Positions 20,942 to 64,000 of a DNA stretch of 64,000 nucleotides are shown in pieces. The stretch lies in NCBI GenBank assembly GCA_947467605.1, contig CANIII010000013.1, forward strand, positions 52,502-116,501, in the 5' to 3' direction. Source of the stretch: Acidobacteriota bacterium (lineage in GTDB: Bacteria; Acidobacteriota; Vicinamibacteria; Vicinamibacterales; SCN-69-37). Within the stretch, counting starts at the first letter, position 1; every line of letters starts with the position of its first letter. The notes below the pieces were generated by a model that saw nothing but the letters and a program-made list of their open reading frames with translations, was not told the DNA's origin and did not search any database. The position numbers and the translations under genes were made by a program.

Positions 20942-22401
20942 CGCTTGTGCTCCGTGGTGGATCCGTCGAACACGTTGAACAGATCGAGCAATTCGAGCAG
21001 GCCCCCGAGCGGCTTGGCCCGTCGCTCGGCGCCGCCGCTGTCATTGGCCAGCCGCACGACCGCGAGTGAGAACACGCTGGTCGACGACCGACTGTATCCG
21101 GCCGCAACGATTTTGCCGTCCGGTTGGAGTGCGAGTGATTTGATCTGATCGTTGACGCCGAGGCCGAACGCGAACGAGGTCGTACCGGAGGTGCCGAAGG
21201 TCGTATCGAGCGCCCCGGTGGTGCCGTAGCGAGCCAGCGCAAACTTGCCGTTCGCGTATCCACCGAGGATCAGTTTGCCGTCGGGCTGCAGCACGATGGC
21301 CGACGCCTCGCCACCGCCGGTGAACGGGGTGATGACCACGCCGTCGCCGTCAAAACTGGTGTCGAGCTGGCCGGCCGTGGTGAAGCGCGCCGCGATGAAA
21401 TCACCGATGCCGACACGCACCCGACCGCCGGCGATCACCGTCTTGCCGTCGCTTTGCAGGACCATATGGTGACAAAAGTTCGCGAACGCGTCGGTCCCGA
21501 CTTGCACCACCGTCGAGCCGCCGGTCCCGAAGGTCGTGTCGGCTACGCCGTTTGCCGTGAAGCGGGCCACAAAGCAGGCTGACGCCGGACTCTTCGTTGT
21601 GTTCTCGAGATAGCCACCCACGGTCAGTCGGCCCTCTGCGTCCACGACCACGGTGTGTCCGTTGGTCGAATCGCCGTACGACACTTGCACCAGTCCGGCC
21701 GTGCCAAATGTGGTATCGAGCGAGCCATTCACATTGAGGCGCGCCATCGCGAGCTTGGCTGATGTCACGCCGCCGTACGAATCGCCAATCACGACCAGCT
21801 TGCCGTCCAATTGCTCAATCACCTCGTGCATATGGCTGGGCCGGCCGAAGTCGACGCTGACCTTGCCTCCGCTGCCGAACGAGGTGTCGAGCGAACCATT
21901 CGAGAGAAAGCGCATCAGACCGTGCTGCGCATACGTGCCGGCGTTTCCTTCGCCGCCCATCACGATTCGGCCGTCGGCCAGCGCCAGAACAGACTTGGCG
22001 TCTTCGTTCTTGCCGCTGCTGAAGCTGAAGACTTCCGGGCTTCGATCGAGCGCACCCGCTGCGGTCAGTTTGAGGAGCGCAAAGTCATCGTCCGCGCCGT
22101 TGAAGTGCTTGCCGGCCACGATGATGCGGCCGTCAACTGCCACGGCCACCGCCGGACCGAACATCGACTCGCCAGACAGCGTCGACAGGTACTTTCCGCT
22201 CGTACCAAAAGTGGTGTCGAGATCACCTGAAACGGCGAGGGGGCCGGCCCGTGGGGCCACGCGCGCGTCCGTGCCGTCGATGGCGTTGGCCCGCCACGGG
22301 AGAGCCGGACTTTGCCCTGGGCCGACCGTTTGCGCCCGCACGATGGCCGACAACACGTTGATCGCGAGGAACACGAGGACGACGTTTCGCTTCATTGGCA
22401 T
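20938..22401 (-). CDS. Secreted delta-60 repeat protein
   Basis: A 487-residue protein with signal MPMKRNVVLVFLAINVLSAIVRAQ and about seven tandem delta-60 repeats, each with the signature L-D-T-T/S-F-G-x-x-G (GDLDTTFGTSGKY, GSLDTSFGSGGKV, GSLDTTFGTAGLV, GVADTTFGTGGST, GQLDTSFDGDGVV, GALDTTFGTSGTT) and a QPDGKL/I-V/I-x-G-G/A turn. Such arrays are thought to form beta-propellers in surface or secreted proteins of Bacteria. The ATG chosen leaves the signal at the very N-terminus. The downstream lipoprotein overlaps by 4 bases. No catalytic motif is present. Confidence 0.88.
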   Translation of the reverse strand: MPMKRNVVLVFLAINVLSAIVRAQTVGPGQSPALPWRANAIDGTDARVAPRAGPLAVSGDLDTTFGTSGKYLSTLSGESMFGPAVAVAVDGRIIVAGKHFNGADDDFALLKLTAAGALDRSPEVFSFSSGKNEDAKSVLALADGRIVMGGEGNAGTYAQHGLMRFLSNGSLDTSFGSGGKVSVDFGRPSHMHEVIEQLDGKLVVIGDSYGGVTSAKLAMARLNVNGSLDTTFGTAGLVQVSYGDSTNGHTVVVDAEGRLTVGGYLENTTKSPASACFVARFTANGVADTTFGTGGSTVVQVGTDAFANFCHHMVLQSDGKTVIAGGRVRVGIGDFIAARFTTAGQLDTSFDGDGVVITPFTGGGEASAIVLQPDGKLILGGYANGKFALARYGTTGALDTTFGTSGTTSFAFGLGVNDQIKSLALQPDGKIVAAGYSRSSTSVFSLAVVRLANDSGGAERRAKPLGGLLELLDLFNVFDGSTTEHKR

Positions 22402-22475
22402 GTTTGACCGGTCTGGAGCCGTATTTGTATCACGGCACATGGTCCGGTACGGCACTTTCGGCTACGCTAGCGCCC

Positions 22476-23927
22476 GTGCGACCACACGAACATACGCGCT
22501 TTCGCAATGTGATCACTGCATCGGCCGTCGGCACGATGATCGAGTGGTACGACTTCTACATCTTCGGCAGCCTGGCGACGATCATCGCGCCGCTGTTCTA
22601 TCCCAAAGGCAACGACACGCTGGCGTTGATGGCGTATCTGTCGACATTTGCCGTCGGCTTTGTCGTACGCCCGTTCGGCGCGCTCGTGTTCGGGCGCATC
22701 GGTGACCTGGTCGGTCGCAAATATGCCTTCCTCGTCACACTGGTCATCATGGGCGGCGCCACCGCGGTGGTCGGCCTGCTGCCGACGTACGCGACGATCG
22801 GGTACGCGGCGCCGATTGCGTTGCTCGTGTTGCGCATCCTGCAGGGGCTGGCGCTCGGCGGTGAATACGGCGGCGCCGCGGTGTATGTCGCCGAGCACGT
22901 GCCCGACGGCAAGCGCGGCTACTACACGAGCTTCATTCAGATCACCGCCACACTCGGGCTCTTCATCTCGCTCATCGTGATTCTCGTTGTGCAGAACATG
23001 CTCGGCGCCGAGGCGTTCAAAGTCTGGGGCTGGCGCGTGCCGTTCCTGATCTCGATATTGCTCGTCGGCATCTCGCTCTACATCCGTCTGAAGATGAAAG
23101 AGTCGCCGATCTTCGAACACCTCAAAGCCACAGGGATGACGTCCACCAAGCCGCTCACGGAAGCCTTCACAGAGTGGGGCAATCTGCGGCGCGTGCTGAT
23201 CTCGCTCTTCGGCGCAACAGCAGGACAGGGCGTGATCTGGTACACCGGGCAGTTCTATGCGCTGTTCTATCTGCAGACCATTCTCAAAGTGAACCCCACG
23301 TCGGCGAGCTACATCGTGGCCGCCGCGCTGCTGCTCGGGATGCCGCTGTTTGTCGTGATGGGCGCGCTCTCGGATCGCATCGGTCGCAAGCGATTGATGA
23401 TGGCCGGCTGCCTGCTGGCTGCGCTCTCGTACATCCCGATCTATCAGGCGATGCAGCGCGCGGCGGGTTCTGGCGTCGTCACGGTGCTCTCACAGAAAAA
23501 CGCGGTCACGGGCGCGATCAGCCTGATTCCGCAAGCGATGGTCAATGGCCAACTCACGCCAGCGCCAGAAGTGCTGACCTACACGAGCCTCGGCGCCCTC
23601 GCCGCGTCGCCGACGGCATGGCAACTCGTGGGCCTCATCTTCATTCAGGTCGTGTTTGTGACGATGGTCTATGGGCCCATCGCGGCGTATCTGGTGGAAG
23701 CGTTTCCTGCAAAGATTCGCTACACCGCGTTGTCGCTGCCGTACCACATCGGCAACGGTGTGTTCGGCGGCCTGCTGCCACTGATCGGTCTCAGCGTCAT
23801 CGCCCGCACCGGCAACATCTACGCGGGCCTCTACTATCCGATCATCGTGGCATCGATCACGTTCGTGATCGGCTCACTGCTGCTCGTGGAAACGCATCAG
23901 CACAAGATCTGGGATGAGGCGGATTGA
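22476..23927 (+). CDS. MFS transporter, metabolite:H+ symporter type
   Basis: A 483-residue, 12-helix permease of the ShiA/ProP/KgtP-like branch. The signature loop 2-3 GRIGDLVGRKYAF and its half-repeat GALSDRIGRKRLMM are present, as are SAVGTMIEWYDFYIFG in helix 1 and LRILQGLALGGEYGGAAVYVAEH in helices 4-5, which are diagnostic of this branch. The GTG start at 22476 puts the N-terminus where the family begins; an earlier ATG would overlap the divergent gene. Substrates of relatives include shikimate, proline/betaine and dicarboxylates; the substrate here cannot be told. An inverted-repeat element starts immediately after the stop. Confidence 0.9.
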   Translation: MRPHEHTRFRNVITASAVGTMIEWYDFYIFGSLATIIAPLFYPKGNDTLALMAYLSTFAVGFVVRPFGALVFGRIGDLVGRKYAFLVTLVIMGGATAVVGLLPTYATIGYAAPIALLVLRILQGLALGGEYGGAAVYVAEHVPDGKRGYYTSFIQITATLGLFISLIVILVVQNMLGAEAFKVWGWRVPFLISILLVGISLYIRLKMKESPIFEHLKATGMTSTKPLTEAFTEWGNLRRVLISLFGATAGQGVIWYTGQFYALFYLQTILKVNPTSASYIVAAALLLGMPLFVVMGALSDRIGRKRLMMAGCLLAALSYIPIYQAMQRAAGSGVVTVLSQKNAVTGAISLIPQAMVNGQLTPAPEVLTYTSLGALAASPTAWQLVGLIFIQVVFVTMVYGPIAAYLVEAFPAKIRYTALSLPYHIGNGVFGGLLPLIGLSVIARTGNIYAGLYYPIIVASITFVIGSLLLVETHQHKIWDEAD

Positions 23928-24634
23928 CGGGTGAGCGGGTAAGCGGGTGAGCGGGTATAGCGGGTGCTCAGGTGCGCGGGTGCGACGGGTGCTCGGGTGC
24001 TCGGGTGCGGTGCGGGTGCGACGGGTGCTCGGGTGCGGTGCGGGGTGGCAGAAAGTGCGACCCTTTCCCTTAACAAGATTGGCAGAAACTGCGTACTTGG
24101 CAGCCTGTCTCTTCGACGACGACTTGGCAGAGAACCTGCAGTGTCAGCACGCGATGGCCGTCCTCGAAGAGCTCATTGTTTGGCAGTTGGCGGATGAGTT
24201 GCGCACGGAAGTGCTGCGGCTCACCGAGCTACCGACCGCTCGGAAGGACTTTCGGTTTCGGGACCAGATCAGAAACGCAGCGAGTTCGGTGCCGGCGAAT
24301 ATCGCGGAAGGATACGGCCGACAGCGTCACGCAGAATTCGCTCGATTCCTGGATTTCGCCACAGGGAGTCTTCGCGAAACGGAAAACTGGCTCCGAGACG
24401 GTGTCCGCCGCAGGATCTGGACCGACGACGACATCTCTGCCGCGCGCCGCCTATGCAAACGCCTCACCCCCGCACTCAACAACCTGCGCAGGTTACCTGC
24501 GATCAACTCAAACCCCAAAGTAGCACCGCACCTGTCGCACCTGTCGCACCGGCGCACCCGCGCACCTGAGCACCTGAGCACCTGAGCACCCGCTCTACCC
24601 GCTTACCTGCGTACCCGCTTACCCGCTTACCCGT
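23928..24634 (+). mobile_element. IVS-like inverted-repeat element carrying a four-helix-bundle gene
   Basis: A roughly 700-bp element placed between the MFS stop and the lactate permease stop. The left arm (23928-24048) is built of short G-rich units such as GGGTGAGC, GGGTAAGC, GGTGCTC and GGTGCGAC. The right arm (24522-24634) is the same sequence inverted: CACCTGTCGCAC, GAGCACC, CTACCCGCTTACC, and so on. A transcript would fold into a long imperfect stem with the gene in the loop. Between arm and gene are four spaced TGGCAG boxes (about 24046, 24081, 24099 and 24125). This is how intervening sequences of some 23S rRNA genes are arranged, but here the site is intergenic. A gene-less relative lies at 26485-26624. 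Confidence 0.6.
24154..24585 (+). CDS. Four helix bundle protein (23S rRNA intervening-sequence family)
   Basis: A 143-residue protein of the family found in 23S rRNA intervening sequences and related to the Avd accessory proteins of diversity-generating retroelements. Diagnostic blocks are ELIVWQLADELRTEVLRLT, the highly conserved FRDQIRNAASSVPANIAEG, and FARFLDFATGSLRETENWL. The ATG at MAVLEELIVW is chosen because helix 1 starts there; the long upstream extension is repeat-derived. The last 16 or so residues (RTRAPEHLST at the end) are encoded by the right inverted-repeat arm, showing that gene and repeat travel as one unit. The cellular role of stand-alone members is unknown. No reverse transcriptase or variable repeat is nearby. 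Confidence 0.88.
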   Translation: MAVLEELIVWQLADELRTEVLRLTELPTARKDFRFRDQIRNAASSVPANIAEGYGRQRHAEFARFLDFATGSLRETENWLRDGVRRRIWTDDDISAARRLCKRLTPALNNLRRLPAINSNPKVAPHLSHLSHRRTRAPEHLST

Positions 24635-26461: not shown

Positions 26462-26484
26462 GGCGGCATTGTAAGGGGAAGAAC

Positions 26485-26624
26485 GGGTGAGCGGGTAAGC
26501 AGGTAAGCGGGTATAGCGGGTGCTCGGGTGAGCGGGTGCGACAGGTGAGCAGGTAAAGCGGGTGAGTTTGTAAAACAGGGGGACGGCCGGGATCTTCGTT
26601 CACCCGCTTACCCGCTTACCTGTC
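26485..26624. repeat. Gene-less relative of the IVS-like inverted-repeat element
   Basis: The same unit vocabulary as the 23.9-24.6 kb element (GGGTGAGC, GGGTAAGC, GGGTATAGCGGG, GGTGCTC, GGTGCGACAGGTG) forms a left arm at 26485-26565. A shorter right arm, CACCCGCTTACCCGCTTACC with TGTC after it, occupies 26601-26624. The last 24 bases of the left arm (26540-26563) pair with the right arm across a 37-base loop. No reading frame is inside. It sits between the starts of the divergent lctP and M24 peptidase genes, so it must be part of their leader or promoter region. Confidence 0.6.
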
Positions 26625-60735: not shown

Positions 60736-60769
60736 CTCCGCCAAATGAGCGAAGCGAAATTTGGCGGAG
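60736..60769. terminator. Inverted repeat overlapping the tRNA-Ser 3' end
   Basis: CTCCGCCAAAT (60736-60746) and ATTTGGCGGAG (60759-60769) pair perfectly over 11 bp with a 12-base loop. The right arm covers the CCA end and part of the acceptor strand of tRNA-Ser. A second hairpin, TTGGGCC/GGCCCAA (60688-60715), follows. Together they may end transcription of the tRNA; the copied acceptor sequence could also mark an old tRNA-targeted insertion. Confidence 0.5.
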
Positions 60770-60851
60770 AGAGAGGGATTCGAACCCTCGGTAGAGTTTC
60801 CCCTACACACGCTTTCCAAGCGTGCTCCTTCAACCACTCGGACATCTCTCC
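60762..60851 (-). tRNA. tRNA-Ser (anticodon GGA)
   Basis: A 90-nt class II tRNA on the minus strand. Acceptor GGAGAGA (60845-60851) pairs with TCTCTCC (60766-60772); discriminator G and an encoded CCA (60762-60764) follow. The anticodon arm CACGCTTGGAAAGCGTG places GGA at 60815-60817, reading UCC/UCU. The D-loop AGTGGTTGAAGG, a long variable arm (TGTAGGGGAAACTCTACC) and the T-loop GGTTCGAATCC are all as expected for serine. Confidence 0.97.
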
Positions 60852-61043: not shown

Positions 61044-64000
61044 GTGATCGCGGCACTTTGCACCACCGCAGAGACGAAGAAGCGCGACACGGATCCCGCC
61101 AAGAAATTGACAACGCGTGTCGTTTCCGCGTCACTGGCCGACGCCTACGCCGCGGCTCGCTACGCCGTGCGACCAAGCGGCGCCGAGACCTGGCAGGCCT
61201 CGAATCCCGGCCAGGCCTTTGCCGCGCACTTCACGCCGGAACGCCTGACGCTGACGCCGACCGCGCTCGCGACGGACGCGTCGCGTTGGCAATTCGGCCT
61301 CCAGTTGGAGTCGATCGGCTACGGCGACGATCGCGTCGCGCCAACATCAGGGGTCGTCACGGCAGCACGGGATCGTGTTGAGGTCACGCACGGCGCAACT
61401 GGCCATGGCGTCGCCGTCACCGAGTGGTACGTCAATCGACAGCGCGGCCTTGAGCACGGCTTCACCCTGCCGACTCGGCCCGCAAAATTTGATGGACGCG
61501 CGCTGCGCGTGCGCCTCGCCACCGACGGCACACTGCATCCTCGCCTGTCGACTTCGCTCGATGCGATCGCCTTCACGAGCGCTGATGGACGCGCCGTGCT
61601 CAACTACGACCACCTCGTGGTCACCGACCGCGACGGCCGCACGGTCCCCAGTCACTTCGAATCCACCGACAGCCACATCGCCATCGTGGTGGACGATCGG
61701 CAGGCGGTGTATCCGCTGACGATTGATCCGACCGTCACGCAAGAGGCGTATCTGAAGTCGGCGAACGCCGGCGCGGGCGATCTGTTTGGCGCGAGCGTCG
61801 CGATCTCTGGCGATACCGCCGTGATCGGCGCGCAATCGGAAGCGAGCAGCAGCACGGGCATCAACAGCACGCCGAATGAATTGGCGGCAACCGCCGGTGC
61901 GGCGTACGTGTTTGTGCGCAGTGCGCTCGGCGCATGGACGCAACAGGCCTATCTCAAGGCATCAAACACCGGCGCGGGCGATCAGTTCGGTCTCTCCGTC
62001 TCCATCTCCGGCGACACGATCGTCGTCGGCGCCCAGTCGGAAGCCAGCAGCGCCACGGGTGTGAACGGCGTTCAGACAGACAACTCGGCGGCCGCCGCAG
62101 GCGCCGCGTATGTGTTTGTGCGCAGCGGCACGACGTGGACGCAGCAGGCGTATCTCAAGGCGTCGAACACCAGCGCCGGCGATTTGTTCGGCCGATCCGT
62201 CAGCGTCTCCGGTGACGTGATCGTCGTTGGCGCGACGGGCGAAGACGACACGTTCGCGGATTCCGGCGCGGCGTATGTCTTTGTGCGCAGCGGCACCGCG
62301 TGGTCGCAGGACGGCTATTTGAAAGCGTCGAATCTCGGCGCAGGCGACAACTTCGGATTTGCCGTCACGGCATCCGGCAACACCGTGGCGGTGGGTTCGC
62401 AGATTGAAGCGAGCAGCACGACCGGCATCAACAGCACGTCGAACGAAGCGGCGGCGAGTGCGGGCGCGGTGTACGTGTTCCGTCGCAACGACATCGGCTG
62501 GTCGCAGGAGGCCTACATCAAGGCGTCGAACACCGGCGCGGGCGATCAGTTCGGTCACGCGGTGGCGCTGTCAGGCGACACGCTCGTGGTCGGCGCCTAC
62601 ACCGAGAGCAGCAACGCGACCGGTGTGAACGGCACGCAGACGGACAACAGCGCGGCGAGCGCCGGTGCGGCGTACGTCTTCACGCGCAGCGGCGCCACGT
62701 GGACGCAGCAGGCGTATCTGAAAGCGTCGAACACGGGCGCGAACGATCAGTTCGGCGCGGCGGTCGCCATTTCCGGCGACACCGTCATCATCGGCGCGCA
62801 GCTCGAAGACAGCAGCTCAACCGGCATCAACAGCACGCCGAATGAATCGGCCGCGAGCGCCGGTGCCGCGTATCTCTTCGCGCGCAGCGGTGGCGTGTGG
62901 CGGCAGCAGGCGTACCTCAAAGCGTCGAATACCGGCGCGAGCGATCAGTTCGGTCATGCCGTCGGCGTCTCCGGCGGCAACGTCATCGTCGGCGCCTTCG
63001 GCGAAGACAGCAGCACGACCGGTGTCAACAGCACGCCCAACGAACTCGCATCGACGGCCGGCGCGGCCTACGCATTTCAGTTCGTGCCCACAGCAGTGGA
63101 TGCCGGCACGGATCAAACGTTGACGTCAACACTCATCGGCTACGTCAGCACATCGCTCACGGCGTCATACAGCGGCGTGGGTCCGACGACCACGCTGACG
63201 TGGAGCGATGGACATGGCTGGGAAGCGCCCGGCGCGACGGTGCCGGTCTCGCTCGGGCCCGGCTATTACACGTTCACGATCACCGCAGTTGACGATGTGC
63301 TGGGCACGGTGGCGTCAGACACGATGACGGTTGAGGTGCAACTGCCGTCGCTCGCCGGTCCCGTTGGTCCGATCGGTCCAGCGGGTCCGATTGGCCCCAT
63401 CGGTCCCACGGGCCCGATGGGACCGCAGGGAATTCAGGGGCCGCAGGGTGCGCAGGGGCCGCAAGGCGCTCAGGGCCTGCAAGGCGACAAGGGCGAAAAG
63501 GGCGACAAAGGTGACAAGGGTGATCCAGGCGTCAATGGCGCGACGGGCGCGCAAGGCGCGACGGGAGCGCAAGGCCCGCAAGGTTTAAAGGGCGACAAGG
63601 GTGACGTGGGCGCCACTGGTCCTGCTGGTGAAACTGGTGCGACTGGTGCAGTTGGCGCAACCGGTGCTATCGGTCCGCAGGGCGTCGCCGGTCCGCAAGG
63701 TGCAACCGGTGCGGTTGGTGCAACAGGCGCGACGGGTGCAACTGGTCCGCAGGGTGTTGCTGGTCCGCAAGGCTTGAAGGGCGACAAGGGCGACGTCGGC
63801 GCGACTGGTCCGGCTGGTGAAACTGGCGCGATTGGTGCGACGGGTGCTGTGGGCGCGACAGGTGCAACTGGTCCGCAAGGCGTTGCTGGTCCGCAAGGCT
63901 TGAAGGGCGACAAGGGCGACGTCGGCGCGACTGGTCCTGCTGGTGAAACTGGCGCGATTGGTGCGACGGGTGCTGTGGGTGCGACGGGTGCAACTGGTCC
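61044..64000 (+). CDS. Large surface protein: FG-GAP propeller plus collagen-like tail (runs off right edge)
   Basis: At least 985 codons, open at the window end. The first start is a GTG at 61044; the frame is closed upstream by a TGA at 60999. No signal peptide follows that start, which is odd for such a protein, so the true beginning may be disrupted. Residues about 50-230 are a beta-rich N-terminal domain. Seven FG-GAP/integrin-alpha-like repeats follow (61740-63090), each with AYLKASNTGAGDQFG, then IVVGA and GAAYVF. After a PKD-like linker comes a collagen-like region from 63357 with continuous Gly-X-Y (GPVGPIGPAGPIGP, later GDKGEKGDKGDKGD). Probably a cell-surface fibre or adhesin. Confidence 0.85.
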   Translation, partial: MIAALCTTAETKKRDTDPAKKLTTRVVSASLADAYAAARYAVRPSGAETWQASNPGQAFAAHFTPERLTLTPTALATDASRWQFGLQLESIGYGDDRVAPTSGVVTAARDRVEVTHGATGHGVAVTEWYVNRQRGLEHGFTLPTRPAKFDGRALRVRLATDGTLHPRLSTSLDAIAFTSADGRAVLNYDHLVVTDRDGRTVPSHFESTDSHIAIVVDDRQAVYPLTIDPTVTQEAYLKSANAGAGDLFGASVAISGDTAVIGAQSEASSSTGINSTPNELAATAGAAYVFVRSALGAWTQQAYLKASNTGAGDQFGLSVSISGDTIVVGAQSEASSATGVNGVQTDNSAAAAGAAYVFVRSGTTWTQQAYLKASNTSAGDLFGRSVSVSGDVIVVGATGEDDTFADSGAAYVFVRSGTAWSQDGYLKASNLGAGDNFGFAVTASGNTVAVGSQIEASSTTGINSTSNEAAASAGAVYVFRRNDIGWSQEAYIKASNTGAGDQFGHAVALSGDTLVVGAYTESSNATGVNGTQTDNSAASAGAAYVFTRSGATWTQQAYLKASNTGANDQFGAAVAISGDTVIIGAQLEDSSSTGINSTPNESAASAGAAYLFARSGGVWRQQAYLKASNTGASDQFGHAVGVSGGNVIVGAFGEDSSTTGVNSTPNELASTAGAAYAFQFVPTAVDAGTDQTLTSTLIGYVSTSLTASYSGVGPTTTLTWSDGHGWEAPGATVPVSLGPGYYTFTITAVDDVLGTVASDTMTVEVQLPSLAGPVGPIGPAGPIGPIGPTGPMGPQGIQGPQGAQGPQGAQGLQGDKGEKGDKGDKGDPGVNGATGAQGATGAQGPQGLKGDKGDVGATGPAGETGATGAVGATGAIGPQGVAGPQGATGAVGATGATGATGPQGVAGPQGLKGDKGDVGATGPAGETGAIGATGAVGATGATGPQGVAGPQGLKGDKGDVGATGPAGETGAIGATGAVGATGATG
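61740..63101 (+). repeat. Seven in-gene FG-GAP repeats of about 201 bp
   Basis: Repeat starts (the Gln codon of Q-x-A/G-Y-L/I-K) are at 61740, 61941, 62142, 62307, 62505, 62706 and 62904: spacings 201, 201, 165, 198, 201 and 198 bp. The third unit is 12 codons short, lacking the TGINSTPNE-type segment. Seven units match a seven-bladed propeller. High similarity between copies suggests recent expansion or homogenisation. Confidence 0.85.
63582..64000 (+). repeat. Collagen-like region with 126-bp tandem units
   Basis: The block beginning GGx-TTx-AAG-GGC (Gly-Leu-Lys-Gly-Asp-Lys-Gly-Asp) occurs at 63582, 63771 and 63897. The last two are exactly 126 bp (42 residues) apart and nearly identical; the first interval is 189 bp, 126 plus 63. 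Units are multiples of 9 bp, keeping the Gly-X-Y register. Such regions vary in length by slippage. Confidence 0.85.

What the first reader, a model, noticed from the sequence alone, without database searches (positions are those of the whole stretch)
23928..24634. IVS-like mobile unit: four-helix-bundle gene inside long inverted repeats, outside rRNA
The gene at 24154-24585 belongs to the family found in 23S rRNA intervening sequences. Here it is enclosed by inverted arms of about 110-120 bp made of short GGGTAAGC/GGTGCTC-type units, and its last codons lie in the right arm. RNA from it would be a giant stem with the gene in the loop, the same geometry as in rRNA IVSs, yet it lies between two protein genes. 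That suggests IVSs are one case of a wider RNA- or DNA-level mobile element whose mechanism is unknown.
Basis: partly seen in the sequence, partly recalled or inferred. Interest (0 to 1): 0.85.

Follow-up and report, generated by a model that had tools for sequence, protein, structure and literature searches.

The report
Likely jumping gene in repeat arms
This short stretch of bacterial DNA carries a small gene, known from inserts in ribosomal RNA genes, between two mirror-image arrays of short repeats; the same layout recurs around many relatives of the gene in other bacteria, and other copies are present or missing at the same place in related species, so it is likely a little-known kind of mobile DNA.

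Summary
In detail: an S23/IVP four-helix-bundle gene (24154-24585) sits between two long inverted arms of 8-bp units. The arms are not private to this locus: the genome has ten more palindromes of this kind without the gene, one of them holding an IS256-type insertion. Inverted short-repeat arms flank 36 of 46 testable S23 genes in the family (controls 1 of 107), 25 of 30 phylum-wide, and 39 of 77 in named genomes of many phyla (controls 8 of 122). Units differ by locus; the G-rich arm precedes the gene in 58 of 61. Two families of gene-free palindromes were abundant only in the genomes whose S23 gene has those arms. At pdhA-pdhB and dnaJ-hspR junctions of one genus the gene, as a rule with its arms, is present in some species, while others have 6-8 bp or overlapping genes. 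I read this as a small mobile element whose S23 protein probably acts on the arm hairpin, also in trans; rRNA IVSs would be one case. Not shown: movement, target duplication, protein-arm binding, an rRNA copy. 13 of 14 family genomes have no detectable reverse transcriptase.

The parts
23928..24044 (+). left arm: G-rich tandem array of 8-9 bp units (CGGGTGAG, CGGGTAAG, CGGGTATAG, CGGGTGCTC, AGGTGCG)
   Evidence: the repeat finder, TRF, unit order
24046..24153 (+). leader with short palindromic motifs TGGCAGAAAGTGC (24046-24059) and TGGCAGAAACTGC (24080-24093); a strict form of the motif is in 10 of 46 family leaders against 0.55 expected, and in 0 of 46 downstream regions
24154..24585 (+). S23/IVP four-helix-bundle gene, 143 aa; last codons run into the right arm
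   Evidence: PF05635 97 bits; TIGR02436; predicted four helices, pLDDT 88.7; nearest solved folds 2gsc, 2rld, then Avd
24527..24633 (-). right arm: inverted copy of the left arm with the units in the same order
26484..26624 (.). gene-free palindrome with the same arm units, on the other side of lctP
   Evidence: arm score 38; RNA fold z -3.8
22395..23927 (+). upstream neighbour, MFS transporter (start codon uncertain); the left arm starts directly after its stop codon
24641..26461 (-). downstream neighbour, L-lactate permease lctP, convergent

Best explanation
The unit at 23928-24633 is one copy of a widespread family of small units, each an S23/IVP four-helix-bundle gene between inverted arrays of short repeats (mostly 7-8 bp), and it likely moves as one piece, with the S23 protein probably acting on the hairpin that its own arms would form. 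Gene-free palindromes with the same units are probably its non-autonomous offspring, mobilised in trans or left by internal deletion. Shown by sequence: the architecture, its recurrence, the dispersed gene-free copies, their match (two unit families tested) to the S23 arm type of the same genome, and presence or absence of the gene with its arms at two orthologous junctions. Inferred: that insertion as a unit explains this pattern, that the S23 protein recognises the hairpin (as RNA or as single-stranded or cruciform DNA), that the route needs no reverse transcriptase, and that transcripts crossing the element would be cut or tolerated as in rRNA intervening sequences.
For: Arms around S23 genes at score >=35: family 36 of 46 usable loci and phylum 25 of 30; family controls 1 of 107, itself next to an S23 gene (Fisher 1e-24; loci include orthologues and paralogues, so are not fully independent); named genomes of many phyla 39 of 77 against 8 of 122 controls (Fisher 1e-12); 10 of 10 fetched plasmid loci above their shuffles, two of them weakly. 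Left arm G-rich in 58 of 61; best period 7 or 8 in 33 of 54 arms of 30 nt or more, and an exact multiple of 7 or 8 in 10 of the other 21. Dispersed copies: ten palindromes without the gene in the own genome, one of them with an IS in its loop. Co-occurrence: the CGGGTAAG-type pattern has 66 hits in G000, 56 in G005 and 0-2 in the other 12 genomes; GTTCATGG has 45 in G010, 44 in G013 and 0 in the other 12; G000, G005, G010 and G013 are the genomes whose S23 genes carry those arms. Presence/absence: pdhA-pdhB, 4 of 29 readable junctions hold gene and arms, five have only 6-8 bp between the genes, one keeps a 31-bp piece with repeat units; dnaJ-hspR, 8 of 30 hold the gene, five are overlapping genes with nothing between. 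One G013 palindrome keeps what looks like an S23 3' end where G010 has the whole element. Gene-free hairpins are in G010 and not in G013 at two of the three sites set side by side. The S23 fold resembles Avd of the DGR ribonucleoprotein.
Against: No movement was observed and no target-site duplication was established. 10 of 46 family loci, 5 of 30 phylum loci and 38 of 77 cross-phyla loci score below 35; of the twelve S23 copies at the two junctions four score below 35, and L321 has lost its left arm. No nuclease, transposase or RT is encoded, so the chemistry is unexplained; binding of S23 protein to the arms is untested. At some orthologous sites the unit, the orientation or the S23 gene itself differs between species, which also fits repeated arrival in a hot spot or in an existing hairpin. 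At the pdh junction unrelated inserts are as patchy as the S23 element (10 of 29). In one search the reversed control pattern, none in G000 and G005, has 19 and 20 hits in G010 and G013, so GC-rich repeats of other kinds exist there. One S23 query found no match among 50,697 phage records. Most relatives are unnamed draft assemblies.
Confidence: 0.6

Rival explanations
1. The S23 gene is the mobile part and lands in the loops of independent palindromic repeats; rRNA helix tips would be just another hairpin. The arms are then the target, not the element.
For: Gene-free palindromes outnumber gene copies. The same site can hold different units, or the gene in opposite orientation, in related species. 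Another insertion, an IS256-type transposase, sits in the loop of a sibling palindrome. At two shared sites whose flanking DNA is about 80-90% identical the S23 proteins are only 51% and 53.5% identical, while two other orthologous S23 pairs are 84.5% and 88.9%.
Against: At pdhA-pdhB and dnaJ-hspR several empty species have no palindrome, only 6-8 bp or overlapping genes, so arms and gene appear to arrive together. Gene-free palindromes of two families were abundant only where an S23 gene has the same arms. The G-rich arm precedes the gene in 58 of 61, not expected for random orientation in a palindrome.
Confidence: 0.2
2. S23 genes are resident genes around which replication slippage and quasi-palindrome correction keep growing matched short-repeat arrays; the dispersed palindromes spread by an unrelated host or transposase activity.
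For: Units differ from locus to locus, and left and right arms match within a genome while arms at an orthologous site differ. [quoted passage not shown]
Against: Presence or absence of gene and arms at orthologous junctions; control genes have almost no such arms; the five dispersed copies printed keep the order of unit variants. The own genome has five Y1 transposase matches; three of the genes carry their own, unrelated palindromes and none lies within 50 kb of an S23-type palindrome on the same contig (coordinates).
Confidence: 0.12
3. An ordinary gene that happens to lie beside unrelated simple repeats or terminators.
For: Some S23 genes show no detectable arms.
Against: Control rate 1 of 107 in the family and 8 of 122 across phyla.
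Confidence: 0.03

Closest known systems
Intervening sequences (IVS) of 23S rRNA with an S23 ORF (Coxiella; Leptospira recalled)
   Same: Same protein family; ORF within a stem formed by terminal inverted repeats; sporadic distribution; a mobile origin has been suggested (PMC4990558, start of abstract and passages).
   Different: Here the unit lies between protein genes, the arms are arrays of 8-bp units (the Coxiella stem is 28 bp), and gene-free copies are dispersed through the genome. No rRNA copy was found.
REP/REPIN palindromes with their RAYT (Y1) transposase
   Same: A gene flanked by palindromes, gene-free copies scattered through the genome, and each gene matched to its own repeat (general comparison recalled; PMC2817692 and PMC3733652 seen only in search listings).
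   Different: No Y1 domain in the S23 protein. The RAYT-like genes of this genome carry different palindromes.
Avd protein of diversity-generating retroelements
   Same: Similar fold (4dwl, 8ube: Foldseek probability 1.00, TM about 0.6-0.8, but E-values 0.2-0.5); a canonical S23 from L118 scores 38 bits against the bAvd model, cut-off 40.
   Different: No reverse transcriptase match in 13 of 14 genomes of the family; no template or variable repeat was looked for.
Heptamer arrays: GGGAATC inverted pairs of Xanthomonas and TAACTGA arrays of Beggiatoaceae/Cyanobacteria
   Same: 7-bp arrays between genes, in Xanthomonas 70 and 75 convergent pairs (PMC4692102, passages; PMC4679880, abstract and passages). 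A Rhodanobacter S23 gene has GGGATTC arms.
   Different: The terms S23, four helix and 23S rRNA do not occur in the main text of either paper; no mobile gene is proposed for them in the passages I saw.

Membership tests
rRNA intervening sequence (IVS) | lies inside a 16S or 23S rRNA gene | tested here: not met
   between MFS and lctP; the only Rfam hit at gathering score in the window is a tRNA at 60765-60851
rRNA intervening sequence (IVS) | encodes an S23/IVP protein (in the ORF-bearing forms) | tested here: met
   PF05635 97 bits
rRNA intervening sequence (IVS) | terminal complementary arms with the ORF between them | tested here: met
rRNA intervening sequence (IVS) | excised from the transcript by RNase III | not testable with these tools
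   needs RNA data
REP/RAYT system | Y1 tyrosine transposase encoded by the element | tested here: not met
   only PF05635 matches in the gene
REP/RAYT system | gene-free palindromic copies dispersed in the genome | tested here: met
   ten palindromes without the gene
MITE / non-autonomous partner of a transposon | presence/absence at orthologous sites | tested here: met
   two of three gene-free hairpins set side by side are in G010 and not in G013
MITE / non-autonomous partner of a transposon | target-site duplication | tested here: inconclusive
   overlapping empty genes (ATGA) against separate stop and start around some insertions would imply a duplication, but the ancestral state is not fixed
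MITE / non-autonomous partner of a transposon | a related autonomous copy encoding a known transposase | tested here: not met
   the gene-bearing copy encodes only S23; the IS256-type transposase in one loop has its own ends, with imperfectly matching flanks GAGCGGGT/GAGCGAGT
Diversity-generating retroelement | reverse transcriptase | tested here: not met
   no PF00078 match in 13 of 14 family genomes, including the own one; all are drafts
Diversity-generating retroelement | Avd-like four-helix-bundle accessory protein | tested here: met
   fold similarity only

The most novel reading that the evidence does not exclude
S23/IVP proteins are the trans-acting proteins of a pan-bacterial class of mobile palindromes built from short-repeat arrays, working without a recognisable transposase or reverse transcriptase; rRNA IVSs, the paired heptamer arrays of Xanthomonas and many 'simple repeats' between genes are members or their gene-free offspring.
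Probability: 0.4. Interest if true: 0.92.

Novelty: categorically new. Interest (0 to 1): 0.82.

Why it matters
PMC4990558 (passage) states that the functionality and origin of rRNA IVSs remain unclear. If S23 genes outside rRNA are a mobile class with gene-free offspring, that question becomes testable in culturable bacteria. It would also give a source for paired short-repeat arrays between bacterial genes, and point to a way of moving DNA by a small Avd-like bundle protein with no recognised catalytic domain.

Tried and rejected
MFS-lctP empty site: no MFS orthologue beside lctP in G007-G009. RAYT as mover: five Y1_Tnp matches in the genome, none within 50 kb of a palindrome on the same contig; a loose arm pattern has one match in two of the five loci; three of the genes have their own GGGAGTTA-type palindromes and two have none (the inverted-repeat scores for these loci used an arbitrary centre and are superseded). 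IS256 as mover: a nested insertion with its own ends. Retro-route with an RVT_1 enzyme: no match in 13 of 14 genomes. Phages: no match for one S23 query. Leader palindrome as universal signal: 10 of 46 in the family but 1 of 30 phylum-wide, so lineage-specific. Literature: ten counted searches of an open-licence library that lacks most subscription journals; no listed title, abstract start or passage that I opened describes S23 genes in repeat arms. Repeats named STRR and SDR in cyanobacteria are recalled, not seen.

Rows dropped: of the 51 matches, one contig-end fragment (G006:C355) was not fetched, and 4 of the 50 loci tested had short flanks. The phylum test used 30 loci, the best match of 30 of the 78 genomes with a match, and had no control set of its own. 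Of 80 named loci 3 were unusable, and the list was the best 80 of 587 in a capped scan. I fetched 10 of 45 plasmid records, chosen by eye from the listing. The two junctions were chosen because a known S23 element sat in them; 30 of 39 and 30 of 37 matching genomes were held, and one pdh locus had no readable pdhA. Gene calls for the orientation count were rough longest-ORF calls. A first control run (118 ORFs) still contained S23 genes and was replaced.

Full report
1. What is there. The gene at 24154-24585 encodes a 143-aa S23/IVP protein (PF05635 97 bits; TIGR02436). It is enclosed by arms at 23928-24044 and 24527-24633 made of 8-9-bp units. The arms are not merely built of similar units: the variants follow the same order from outside in, GTGAG/GTAAG, GTATAG (GTAGAG), GTGCTC, GTGCG. 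The arm score is 107 against a best of 36 in 60 shuffles, and the RNA fold has z = -12.1. The left arm begins directly after the MFS stop codon.

2. The arms are a dispersed family. The arm pattern has 66 hits in the 3.66-Mb genome, and its reversed control none. Read out, they are nine palindromes with loops of 22-135 bp, one palindrome whose loop holds an IS256-type (Transposase_mut) insertion, four lone or degenerate arms, and the S23 copy. The five gene-free copies whose units I printed keep the unit order. One gene-free copy is in the window at 26484-26624. The genome's second S23 gene (C1:8455) has different arms with GGAAGTG-like units.

3. The architecture belongs to S23 genes in general. 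In the family, 11 of 14 genomes have S23 genes, 51 matches. Of 50 loci tested 46 had usable flanks, and 36 have inverted arms at score >=35; 1 of 107 control ORFs from 20 of the same regions does, and it lies next to an S23 gene. These loci include orthologues and paralogues and are not fully independent. Phylum-wide, 78 of 149 genomes have the gene; 25 of 30 loci tested have arms (no separate control). In named genomes of many phyla (Bacteroidota, Clostridia, Proteobacteria, Planctomycetes, Chloroflexota and others) 39 of 77 reach 35 and 50 exceed their shuffles by more than 5, against 8 of 122 controls at 35. All 10 fetched plasmid loci exceed their shuffles, L263 and L266 only weakly. Units differ from locus to locus. 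The best period is 7 in 22 and 8 in 11 of 54 arms of 30 nt or more, and an exact multiple of 7 or 8 in 10 of the other 21; the left arm is G-rich in 58 of 61. The upstream neighbour is co-directional in 113 of 149 and the downstream one in 88 of 147 (rough gene calls; p = 2e-10 and 0.02). Misses: 10 of 46, 5 of 30 and 38 of 77 fall below 35.

4. Gene-free palindromes track the S23 arm type. The CGGGTAAG pattern is abundant in G000 (66) and G005 (56), with 0-2 hits in the other 12 family genomes. The reversed control pattern has none in G000 and G005, but 19 and 20 hits in G010 and G013, so other GC-rich repeats exist there. GTTCATGG is abundant in G010 (45) and G013 (44), with none in the other 12 and no control hits. 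G000, G005, G010 and G013 are the genomes whose S23 genes carry these arms. Only two unit families were tested this way, and the paired genomes share a genus, so shared descent also contributes.

5. Presence and absence at orthologous sites. Between G010 and G013 (flanks about 80-88% identical DNA), one site holds an S23 element in G010 and, in G013, a palindrome with the same units whose loop keeps about 30 bp resembling the S23 3' end: an apparent internal deletion. Of three gene-free hairpins of G010 set side by side with G013, two are absent there and the third is unclear. At one site G013 has an S23 gene with GGTCC-type units (arm score only 29 against 28 in shuffles) and G010 a gene-free palindrome with a GTGCTGA-like unit. 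At another site both have S23 genes with different units and opposite orientation, proteins 53.5% identical. G007 and G008 share a site (flanks 87-90%) but their S23 proteins there are 51% identical, although two other orthologous pairs are 84.5% and 88.9%. So sites are re-used or the content turns over.

6. Two operon junctions in one genus. pdhA-pdhB: 41 genomes searched, 39 matched, 30 loci held, 29 readable. Four have S23 with arms (two with AGTGGTC-type units, scores 53 and 45; two with GTGAGC-type units, scores 33 and 26, each above its shuffles), five have only 6-8 bp, nine others have gaps of 16-139 bp, one keeps 31 bp with repeat units, and ten have other inserts. On the pdhB tree, mostly weakly supported (4 of 26 inner branches starred), carriers are scattered; one S23 carrier is sister to a 7-bp empty site (95/78) and another to a genome with an unrelated insert (100/99). 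dnaJ-hspR: 37 of 41 matched, 30 held and readable; 8 have S23, 5 are overlapping genes, 17 have gaps of 5-169 bp, one of them a gene-free palindrome. Six of the 8 reach arm score 35; L308 scores 27 and L321 has lost its left arm. Where the empty state is an ATGA overlap, an insertion keeping both stop and start would need a small duplication; that is suggestive only, because the ancestral state is not fixed.

7. How it most likely works. The unit behaves like a mobile element made of arms plus S23 gene, with gene-free offspring. No nuclease, transposase or RT is encoded. The own genome's Y1 transposases have their own palindromes (three) or none (two), and 13 of 14 family genomes, all drafts, have no PF00078 match. 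The S23 model (pLDDT 88.7) matches 2gsc and 2rld and, with weak E-values but probability 1.00, Avd of the DGR ribonucleoprotein. I infer that the S23 assembly binds the hairpin of its arms, as RNA or as exposed DNA, and lets host replication or repair do the joining. None of this binding or joining is shown.

8. Compared with the known. By geometry and protein it works like an rRNA IVS, but it is not one: it lies outside rRNA. The Coxiella paper (PMC4990558, passages) gives the IVS origin as unclear and lists transposition and a mobile element as hypotheses. Papers on heptamer arrays (PMC4692102, passages; PMC4679880, abstract and passages) describe such arrays, in Xanthomonas as 70 and 75 convergent pairs, without the term S23. 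In ten library searches (listed under Tried and rejected) I saw no description of S23 genes in repeat arms; that library lacks most subscription journals.

9. Verdict. The layout and its recurrence are shown; mobility of the unit is the best reading (0.6); the role of the S23 protein and the inclusion of rRNA IVSs are inference. I rate it categorically new because the tested defining features of IVSs (place in rRNA), RAYT systems (Y1 enzyme) and DGRs (RT) are not met, while the unit still looks mobile.

Noticed in passing
L149, L151, L152 (own genome; Y1 matches at C1:96523, C4:153806, C9:66560): RAYT-like Y1 transposase genes, each with near-identical GGGAGTTA...TAACTCCC palindromes just up- and downstream, apparently a separate REP system in the same genome.
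   Followed up: partly
L033:1984-3340 (G000:C24): IS256-type transposase inserted in the loop of a sibling palindrome, flanked by GAGCGGGT/GAGCGAGT.
   Followed up: partly
L272, L274, L277, L279, L280, L283, L284, L291, L292, L293: The pdhA-pdhB junction of this genus also receives other inserts of about 400-630 bp; some start with reading frames that look by eye like small toxin-antitoxin or DUF genes.
   Followed up: no
window 62412-64000: Long tandem repeats of 9-198 bp whose units suggest a collagen-like glycine-rich protein, reaching the window end.
   Followed up: no
L261, L262, L263 (plasmids): S23 genes inside functional gene clusters: between nrdB and nrdA in antisense (Nostoc edaphicum), cas6 and cas4 (Anabaena sp. 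90), cas10/cmr2 and cmr3 (Picosynechococcus).
   Followed up: partly
L102:8959-9706 and L106:9141-9706: The same intergenic site holds S23 genes with different units and opposite orientation in two related species; L065 (the G010 copy) is one of three exceptions to the G-rich left arm and the plainly C-rich one, as an inversion between the arms would give.
   Followed up: partly
L099:13551-14097: A GTTCATGG palindrome in G010 with a loop of roughly 450-500 bp that is not S23 and looks by eye like a transposase remnant; G013 keeps only one arm at this site.
   Followed up: no
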